Shown in pieces: positions 15,903 to 18,244 of a stretch of 64,000 nt of DNA. How positions within the stretch are numbered: the stretch's first letter is position 1; every line of letters begins with the position of its first letter. Location: positions 62,001 to 126,000 of the forward strand of contig NZ_QMIE01000001.1 in assembly GCF_007625075.1 (NCBI RefSeq). Direction: 5' to 3'. This DNA is from Oceanidesulfovibrio indonesiensis. Lineage in GTDB: Bacteria > Desulfobacterota > Desulfovibrionia > Desulfovibrionales > Desulfovibrionaceae. The translations under genes were made by a program, and so were the position numbers. The notes under the pieces are model-generated. The model had not been told where the DNA came from and ran no database searches. It saw only the letters and a list, made by a program, of their open reading frames with translations.

Positions 15903-16190
15903 TCAGGACTTTAAAGCGTCTTCCTGGCTGAGTTGTGCAGAGGGGGGCTTCCGAGGCCGACCCGGGCCGCGTTCGGAAGGAGCAGGCAAAAGGGCTTTCG
16001 GGATGCCGTACTCGATAAGCCGTTGGATTTTATCCTTTGGACGGCGCTCCCCTTTGATGAGGCGCGTGACAAAGGAGGTATGTGTTCCCAAATGGATGGC
16101 AAGCTCTTTGTTCGAGATGCCGTTGTATGCGAGCCACGCTCGTAGTAGTTGGCAGCGGTTTTCCATGACTCTTGCTTTTTTTGGGTTCAT
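15903..16190 (-). CDS. small helix-turn-helix DNA-binding protein with AT-hook-like tail
   Basis: 95 residues. The central part ISNKELAIHLGTHTSFVTRL followed by IKGERRP reads as a Cro/CI-type HTH, with ELAIHLG as the first helix and TSFVTRLIKG as the recognition helix. Downstream, GPGRPRKPP resembles an AT-hook (core GRPRK). It is divergent from the S24 repressor gene with 105 bp between them holding an inverted repeat, an arrangement like a phage immunity switch, but no other phage gene is nearby. A role as a partner or antagonist of the S24 protein is inference. The function and target are unknown. Confidence 0.7.
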   Translation of the reverse strand: MNPKKARVMENRCQLLRAWLAYNGISNKELAIHLGTHTSFVTRLIKGERRPKDKIQRLIEYGIPKALLPAPSERGPGRPRKPPSAQLSQEDALKS

Positions 16191-16234
16191 CGATATGTGT
16201 CAAGCGTATCTTATTGAGGTTTCATGTTCCCTGT

Positions 16235-16270
16235 CAAGTTCTTACTTGGTGTGACGTATCTGAATATATA
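16235..16270 (+). promoter_or_regulatory. promoter and operator-like dyad in the HTH/S24 divergent region
   Basis: The perfect dyad CAAGT-TCTT-ACTTG (16235-16248) overlaps a weak -35 TTACTT (16242-16247), which is followed after 17 nt by a -10 TATATA (16265-16270) in front of the S24 repressor gene. The dyad may be where the repressor or the small HTH protein binds. Two similar GTGT(C/G)A...CGTATCT stretches (about 16197 and 16250) also occur in this interval. Confidence 0.5.
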
Positions 16271-16295
16271 AACACGAATACGCAAGGAGATAGAA

Positions 16296-16991
16296 TTGTC
16301 ATCATTCGACCAGGTTTTCGAACGGATCAAATCGGCGACGAATACGCGCACTCAGGTTGAGCTGGCCGAGGTCCTCGGCATTCGCCAGTCGAGCATCTCG
16401 GATGCCAAACGGCGCAACTCGGTGCCGGCGGACTGGTACCTCAAGCTTTTCGAGCAATACGGGCTCAACCCCGACTGGCTGAAGATCGGCCAGGGGCCGA
16501 TGTATCTGAAAAGCGAGGAAGGCTATCAACCGTACGACGGGCCGGCAGCTCTGAGCCTGCGCGAGGAAGCGGCGCACTATGCCGAACCGGAGAGCAAGGG
16601 CATCGTGGTCAATGTCCATTCCATGCAGAGCGAAAGCGAGACGCATGAGGGATATGAGCCCAAGTCCATCGGCAAACTGAACGTGCCGCGTTCACTGGCT
16701 CCCAGTTCCATCCTCGTAGTCAAGGTGGAAGGTTCAAGCATGGAACCGCATATTCGCCGCGGTGCGTATGTAGGGATTGACCAGAGCAAGAAAAATGTGG
16801 TCTCGGGCGAGATATTCGGCGTCTTCGTGCCGTACGAGGGGCTTTTGCTCAAGCGGGTATTCCTGGATGCAGACCGCGAGCGGATCGTGCTGCGGTCCGA
16901 AAACCAGGCCCACCCCGAAACCGAAATCCATGTGGATAAGGCGCAGGAGCGCATTGTGGGCCGCGCCGTCTGGGTCATGCAGGAACTGTAG
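16296..16991 (+). CDS. CI/LexA-like repressor: HTH plus S24 peptidase domain
   Basis: 231 residues. The start is a TTG at 16296 with AAGGAG 7 nt upstream. Residues ~5-65 form a CI-type HTH (TQVELAEVLGIRQSSISDAK). The C-terminal half is an S24 domain with the Ser nucleophile in VEGSSMEP (Ser148) and the general-base Lys in GLLLKRVFL (Lys186). LexA/CI relatives cleave themselves when RecA filaments form; no clear Ala-Gly cleavage site is visible in the linker, so autocleavage is not assured. It faces a small HTH gene on the other strand and is followed by a terminator and then the ClpX-like ATPase gene. Confidence 0.88.
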   Translation: MSSFDQVFERIKSATNTRTQVELAEVLGIRQSSISDAKRRNSVPADWYLKLFEQYGLNPDWLKIGQGPMYLKSEEGYQPYDGPAALSLREEAAHYAEPESKGIVVNVHSMQSESETHEGYEPKSIGKLNVPRSLAPSSILVVKVEGSSMEPHIRRGAYVGIDQSKKNVVSGEIFGVFVPYEGLLLKRVFLDADRERIVLRSENQAHPETEIHVDKAQERIVGRAVWVMQEL

Positions 16992-17028
16992 TTCAGGCTG
17001 TCCCACATGCGTTCTGACGACGCAAAAG

Positions 17029-17068
17029 GCCGCGGAATGCTCTATGGGCGCCGCGGCTTTTTTTCTTG
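17029..17068 (+). terminator. intrinsic terminator after the S24 repressor gene
   Basis: GCCGCGG (about 17032-17038) pairs with CCGCGGC (about 17054-17060), followed by a run of T (TTTTTTT). It separates the repressor from the downstream ClpX-like gene, so the latter needs its own promoter or read-through. Confidence 0.75.
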
Positions 17069-17115
17069 ATCCCTTTTGCTGCGAGGGTTTACATGCACAC
17101 GCATACAGGAGGTGC

Positions 17116-18244
17116 ATGGATTCCATGAACGCGTCTTTGATGCCGCAGGACATATACGATCATCTCGCATCGCGGGTGCTCGGGCAGGAAGCTGCGCTGC
17201 GCGCCATTTCAGTGGCAGTGTACAAGCACGTGAACCGCATCGGCGGCGCGCGCATTCTGATGATCGGCAACAGCGGCACTGGCAAGACCACGATCATGAA
17301 GGCGATCGAGGAGTTGTACTCCAGCCGTGAATCCCTCGCGGCCTTCCGCGCCATGACCATCATGAACGCGCGCACGCTTCTGAACGAGGCTGGCGATGTG
17401 GACACGTTCGGCATCTTCCGAAGCCTGGAAAGCAGAGTCGCCGCCATGCTTGGCGAGAAGCGTCCCCCCCCAGGCAGTGCTCTCGCTGATGGAAAACGCC
17501 ACGGTCTGTCTTGATGAAATAGACAAAATATCCGGCAAGGTCGCCGGGAAGCCCGATGTTACGGGCATTACCCTCCAGCAGGCGCTGCTCACACTCATCG
17601 AAGGAGAGCGCGTTCTCTACCGCGCCCGCGTGTTCGCCGACGGTGCGGAGCGCATCGCCAAGTTGCCAATCAATACGCGGAACATGCTTTTCGTTTGCGG
17701 CGGAGCCTTCGAGGAACTCTACGACCAGGTGTACAGCCGGGTGGAGAACAAGGAGGACGAAAGGCGGCTCAAGGAAATCCGGGATTATGACAAGCAACAC
17801 GGCATGAAGACCACAATTCTCTTCACTCTGCGCGATTATCTCAAGCTTTCCGACCTGTTTCACTACGGCATGGCTCCGCAATTCCTGTCGCGCTTCAGTT
17901 CCATAGCCGTGCTCGATGATCTGGGGCGCGAAACCTTGCAGCGCATTCTGCTTCACTCCGCCGATTCTCCCTATCTGCATTCGAAAGCGTACTTCCGCAC
18001 CATGGGCATAGACTTGCAGCTCACCGAGGGTGCCGTCGCGGCTGTTGTGGCGCATGCGGCCGAAAACACCCGGCTGGGCGCCAGGGCGCTGAGGGAGGAC
18101 TTTGCCCGGGTGGTGGTGGATATGGAGTTCGACCCCTTTGGCTCACCGGGTCTTCGCGAAACGGAGCAGGGCGGGAAGGCCCTTACGATAGACGCAGACA
18201 TGGTTGCAGAAAAACTGGCTGCCTGGGCTGGCTACGGAGACTGA
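17116..18244 (+). pseudogene. ClpX-like AAA+ ATPase gene split by a +1 frameshift in a C8 run
   Basis: The gene starts at ATG 17116 with AGGAGG 5 nt upstream. Frame 1 gives Walker A GNSGTGKT (residues 51-58) and continues to codon 116, where eight consecutive C (17464-17471) carry it into a short tail ending at 17514. Removing one C joins it exactly to the second frame, which then supplies Walker B VCLDEIDKI, the sensor region FVCGGAF, an arginine-finger region FLSRF and a C-terminal helical domain, in total ~375 residues. This matches the ClpX/HslU AAA+ layout without the ClpX zinc finger. The gene could be a sequencing artefact, a true pseudogene, a phase-variable gene or a frameshifting gene. 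Its position beside the S24 repressor hints at a link with regulated proteolysis, which is inference. Confidence 0.7.

What the first reader, a model, noticed from the sequence alone, without database searches (positions are those of the whole stretch)
17116..18244. ClpX-like ATPase broken by a run of eight C: error, pseudogene or phase switch
Seen: two overlapping frames join into one continuous AAA+ protein if one C of the C8 run (17464-17471) is removed; Walker A is in the first frame and Walker B in the second, and the second frame has no other sign of decay. Known: homopolymeric C or G tracts cause phase variation in other bacteria. Inference: a reversible on/off switch of a ClpX-like unfoldase beside an S24 repressor would be a new regulatory arrangement; the alternative is a base-call error.
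Basis: partly seen in the sequence, partly recalled or inferred. Interest (0 to 1): 0.6.

Follow-up and report, generated by a model that had tools for sequence, protein, structure and literature searches.

The report
One-base frameshift in ClpX-like gene
A gene for a ClpX-like protein-remodelling ATPase is broken in this one genome assembly by one extra C in a run of eight; the rest of the gene is intact, and at least three unrelated genes of the same genome are broken the same way, so it looks like an ordinary copying slip or sequencing slip and not a special on/off switch.

Summary
A C8 run at 17464-17471 puts the start (17116-17514) and the rest (to 18244) of one ClpX-like AAA+ gene in different frames. 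Read through, they give 375 residues that align end to end with intact homologues in nine other genomes or metagenome bins, including the only congener held (77% identical, syntenic). None of these has a C tract at this place. Both halves look fully constrained (dN/dS 0.136 before, 0.127 after the run) and no conserved residue is lost beyond those the congener also lost. So the shift is private and either very recent or not real.

It is not special to this gene. At least three other genes of this genome (ATP-grasp, Hpt-STAS, NAD-kinase-like) carry the same kind of one-base excess at C/G runs of 8-9, while 13 such runs lie in frame. Shorter runs show no clear breaks; mutS and mutL are intact. 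I favour an accidental slippage mutation in the sequenced isolate, with a consensus error as close rival. Nothing supports an evolved phase switch: the tract is not conserved and sits at codon 117. The S24 neighbour is real and syntenic in two relatives, but a terminator separates it. Low interest.

The parts
17116..17514 (+). 5' part of the ClpX-like gene: 132 residues, P-loop (Walker A 17266-17289), ends in frame-1 stop after the C run
   Evidence: weak ClpX/AAA matches
17464..17471 (+). C8 homopolymer where the reading frame changes by one base
   Evidence: absent in all homologues
17396..18244 (+). 3' part of the ClpX-like gene, open frame 2 (Walker B 17504-17518, arginine-finger PQFLSRF, sensor-2 GARALR); coding signal begins after the C run
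17107..17113 (+). Shine-Dalgarno-like AGGAGGT before ATG 17116
   Evidence: sequence
17024..17064 (+). Intrinsic terminator (hairpin 17024-17062, -23.4 kcal/mol, U7 tail) between the S24 gene and the ClpX-like gene, so they are probably separate transcription units
16296..16991 (+). Neighbouring CI-type HTH plus peptidase S24 repressor-like protein, intact; syntenic in two relatives

Best explanation
The gene encodes a ClpX-like AAA+ remodelling ATPase that was functional until very recently. A slipped-strand insertion enlarged a C run by one base in the sequenced isolate (or in part of its culture) and knocked the gene out: the product stops at residue 132, after Walker A and before Walker B. 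It is an accidental, in principle revertible slip at a mutable run, one of at least four of the same kind in this genome, and not an evolved on/off switch. Shown: the tract, the shift, the constraint, absence of the tract in homologues, three parallel cases, intact mutS/mutL. Inferred: that the extra base is in the DNA and not only in the consensus.
For: Intact full-length homologues, including the syntenic congener, without the tract. No decay on either side. Three other genes with the same one-base excess at C/G runs of 8-9: ATP-grasp, Hpt-STAS and NAD-kinase-like; the Hpt-STAS gene is intact in the congener. No frame breaks at ten in-gene C/G runs of 7. In 800 kb the breaks flagged at runs of 6-7 are gene junctions, except one unresolved 73-base overlap at a G6. 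This length threshold fits slippage, and is unlike platforms that miscall short homopolymers. A G14-A-G38 block inside a CRISPR array looks like a two-colour short-read poly-G artefact, suggesting Illumina-type data, in which indels at an 8-base run are uncommon (PMC8808543).
Against: No reads were available, so a consensus error is not excluded. Reliability at 8-base homopolymers does fall on NextSeq-type machines (PMC11140927). All four cases have the same sign (+1), which a systematic overcall would also give (4 of 4, two-sided p 0.125).
Confidence: 0.5

Rival explanations
1. Consensus or assembly error: the organism's gene is intact and the extra C is an overcall in a long C/G run.
For: The assembly is a draft of 330 contigs with at least one visible artefact (G14-A-G38). 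At least four genes show the same +1 excess only at C/G runs of 8-9. All are otherwise intact, and MMR genes are intact, so no mutator explains them. 8-base homopolymers are less reliable on all three short-read machines tested in PMC11140927.
Against: Thirteen other in-gene C/G runs of at least 8 are in frame. No clear breaks at C/G runs of 4-7 or at A/T runs in 800 kb. Illumina-type indels are described as mainly a problem of much longer runs (PMC8808543).
Confidence: 0.34
2. Evolved phase variation: the C tract is a contingency locus that turns the ClpX-like ATPase on and off, perhaps to tune the neighbouring S24 repressor.
For: C/G tracts are known contingency elements in other bacteria. 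Frameshifts in homopolymers are frequent and reversible (PMC2831843). The rest of the gene is intact.
Against: Tract absent in every homologue, including the congener. Such runs are below the shuffle expectation in this window (1 against 4.6). The tract lies at codon 117, whereas selected poly-A/T tracts cluster towards 5' ends (PMC2831843). The other broken genes are unrelated functions. A terminator lies between S24 and this gene, and S24 is adjacent only in two relatives.
Confidence: 0.1
3. Recoding: ribosomes or RNA polymerase slip on the C run, so some full-length protein is made.
For: CCC-C prolines are a known +1 slippery context (own knowledge). Both frames keep a coding signal right up to the run.
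Against: No relative has a slippery run or frame change here, so it is not a conserved programme. The local RNA fold is no better than shuffles (z -0.65).
Confidence: 0.04

Closest known systems
Frameshift by slipped-strand mispairing in a homopolymeric tract (e.g. Listeria inlA poly-A, Bacillus swrA; PMC2831843)
   Same: One-base length change in a homopolymer truncates an otherwise intact gene
   Different: Those tracts are A runs near the 5' end and polymorphic among strains; here a C run at codon 117 seen in one assembly only
ClpX (ATP-dependent Clp protease ATP-binding subunit)
   Same: Best sequence and fold match over the whole protein; Walker A/B, arginine finger and sensor-2 positions kept
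   Different: Only 28% identical to the genome's own ClpX, below the ClpX equivalog cut-offs, no zinc-binding domain, and no GYVG pore-loop or IGF-type ClpP-docking motif at the aligned positions

Membership tests
Phase-variable (contingency) homopolymer locus | Tract present and length-polymorphic among related strains | tested here: not met
   Absent in the congener and all other intact homologues; no second strain of the same species was available
Phase-variable (contingency) homopolymer locus | Tract length mixed within a population, with reversible expression | not testable with these tools
   No reads or cultures
Phase-variable (contingency) homopolymer locus | Rest of the gene maintained by selection | tested here: met
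   dN/dS 0.136 and 0.127 on the two sides; equally expected for a fresh mutation or an error
Pseudogene (old) | Accumulated decay after the first disabling change | tested here: not met
   No further stops or shifts, no excess loss of invariant residues
Homopolymer consensus error | Reads disagree with the consensus run length | not testable with these tools
   Indirect only: at least four +1 cases at C/G runs of 8-9 in one draft
ClpX sensu stricto | Equivalog score, N-terminal zinc-binding domain, GYVG pore-1 loop, IGF loop for ClpP | tested here: not met
   36.8 and 109.3 bits for the two halves (two separate scans) against a cut-off of 359; motifs missing in the alignment with own ClpX
ClpX/HslU-type AAA+ ATPase | Walker A, Walker B, arginine finger, sensor 2, fold | tested here: met
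   (on the read-through protein and its homologues)

The most novel reading that the evidence does not exclude
C/G tracts of 8-9 in several genes of this species (ClpX-like ATPase, Hpt-STAS signalling protein, ATP-grasp enzyme, NAD-kinase-like protein) form a real set of reversible frame switches, a kind of set not reported for this group of bacteria in the papers I could search.
Probability: 0.06. Interest if true: 0.5.

Novelty: already known. Interest (0 to 1): 0.12.

Why it matters
As it stands, little: it is a caution that one-base breaks at long C/G runs in draft genomes should be judged against all runs of the same assembly and against intact relatives before a switch is proposed. If read data showed mixed tract lengths at all four genes, it would point to slippage-driven diversity in a group where I found no paper on homopolymer phase variation (open-access library only).

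Tried and rejected
Mutator explanation: rejected, mutS and mutL are full length and intact. General low-quality homopolymer calling: not seen at C/G runs of 4-7 or at A/T runs in 800 kb; breaks flagged at runs of 6-7 proved to be gene junctions, bar one unresolved G6 overlap. A first frame-break candidate at L058 was rejected as two adjacent genes. Mobile origin: no close relative among phages or plasmids; matches there are about 30% identical and include genes annotated as clpX. S24-ClpX-like operon: rejected because of the terminator and non-conserved linkage. Statistics: 4 broken of 17 in-gene C/G runs of at least 8, against 0 of 10 runs of 7 (p 0.26) and 0 of 5 in the congener (p 0.54), are not significant alone; against all C/G runs of 4-7, p is 3e-5, with the caveat that the two classes were scored by slightly different rules.

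Full report
What was checked. The C8 run lies at 17464-17471 as stated and is the only one of that length in the window. By dinucleotide shuffles 4.6 would be expected, so the run is not an excess. Frame 1 from ATG 17116 holds the P-loop and stops at 17514. Frame 2, open to 18244, holds Walker B, the arginine-finger and sensor-2 regions. With one base skipped at the run the two give a single 375-residue protein (P0003).

What the gene is. Halves and read-through match ClpX best in NCBIfam, PDB sequences and PDB folds. The protein is not ClpX: the genome has its own ClpX at G000:C4, 28% identical; the scores are far under the equivalog cut-off; and in alignment with that ClpX the zinc-binding domain, the GYVG pore loop and the IGF-type ClpP-docking loop are missing. 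PMC7112952 describes the pore-1 and IGF loops of ClpXP. It is therefore most likely a ClpP-independent remodelling ATPase; that function is inferred. The predicted fold has mean pLDDT 76, weak in the inserted region 209-268.

Relatives. The congener G001 holds the gene intact at 77% identity, and eight other genomes or metagenome bins hold it intact at 46-55%. It is sporadic in the family: in the relatives searched, only G001, G014, G015, G025, G027, G032 and G037 carry it. At the place of the run none has a C tract. In the congener the whole neighbourhood is syntenic: S24 95%, HTH 95%, HflK/HflC, TPR. In G015 the S24-ClpX-like order and HflK/HflC are kept. In the others no S24 gene lies beside it. 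A strong intrinsic terminator separates the S24 gene from this one.

No decay. Against the congener dN/dS is 0.136 before the run and 0.127 after it, like neighbouring genes (0.02-0.22). Of 75 columns invariant in the eight other homologues the protein departs at two, the same two as the congener. A long-standing pseudogene is excluded.

Not special to this gene. The genome has about 31 C/G runs of 8 or more. A codon-usage frame test finds 13 in frame within genes and 4 where the coding frame changes by one surplus base: this gene, an ATP-grasp protein (G000:C2:23718), an Hpt-STAS protein (G000:C9:67877) and a NAD-kinase-like protein (G000:C9:111174). The congener's complete genome shows 5 in frame and none broken. 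The Hpt-STAS gene is intact there. The congener had no full-length match to the other two, so those two rest on coding signal and on Pfam matches. In 800 kb of this genome, C/G runs of 4-7 and A/T runs show no breaks beyond the gene-junction background also seen in 400 kb of the congener; I inspected only those at runs of 6-7 by eye, and one at a G6 (G000:C2:86424) is unresolved. mutS and mutL are intact.

Error or mutation. The draft has a G14-A-G38 block inside a CRISPR array, which looks like poly-G from two-colour chemistry (G carries no label on such machines, PMC11140927). That suggests Illumina-type reads, for which indels at 8-base runs are uncommon though not absent (PMC8808543; PMC11140927). 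I therefore lean to a real, recent slippage insertion (0.5) over a consensus error (0.34). Reads would decide; they were not available.

Switch. Homopolymer frameshifts are frequent and revertible in principle (PMC2831843), so this run could flip. Nothing shows it is kept for that purpose: the tract is private, such runs are below expectation in the window, the site is a third of the way into the gene, the co-affected genes are a miscellany, and the repressor link is weak. Probability of an evolved switch about 0.1.

Noticed in passing
L088:2478-2530 (G000:C17:98977-99029, outside the window): G14-A-G38 block sits where a spacer should be in a CRISPR array (repeat GGATCATCCCCGCGGGCGCGGGGAACAC); probably a two-colour poly-G assembly artefact, possibly a collapsed array.
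   Followed up: partly
L056:1501, L078:1501, L079:1501 (G000:C2:23718, G000:C9:67877, G000:C9:111174): Three further genes (ATP-grasp, Hpt-STAS, NAD-kinase-like) broken by one surplus base in C/G runs of 8-9.
   Followed up: yes
17116-18244; intact copies in L093-L099, L036, L037: Distinct, sporadic ClpX-like family without zinc-binding domain, GYVG pore loop or IGF loop; not reached by NCBIfam cut-offs. A function without ClpP is likely but unknown.
   Followed up: partly
15903-16991: Small HTH protein (minus strand) and S24/CI-type repressor (plus strand) are divergent and 95% identical to the congener's copies, well above neighbouring genes; S24 dN/dS is only 0.02.
   Followed up: partly
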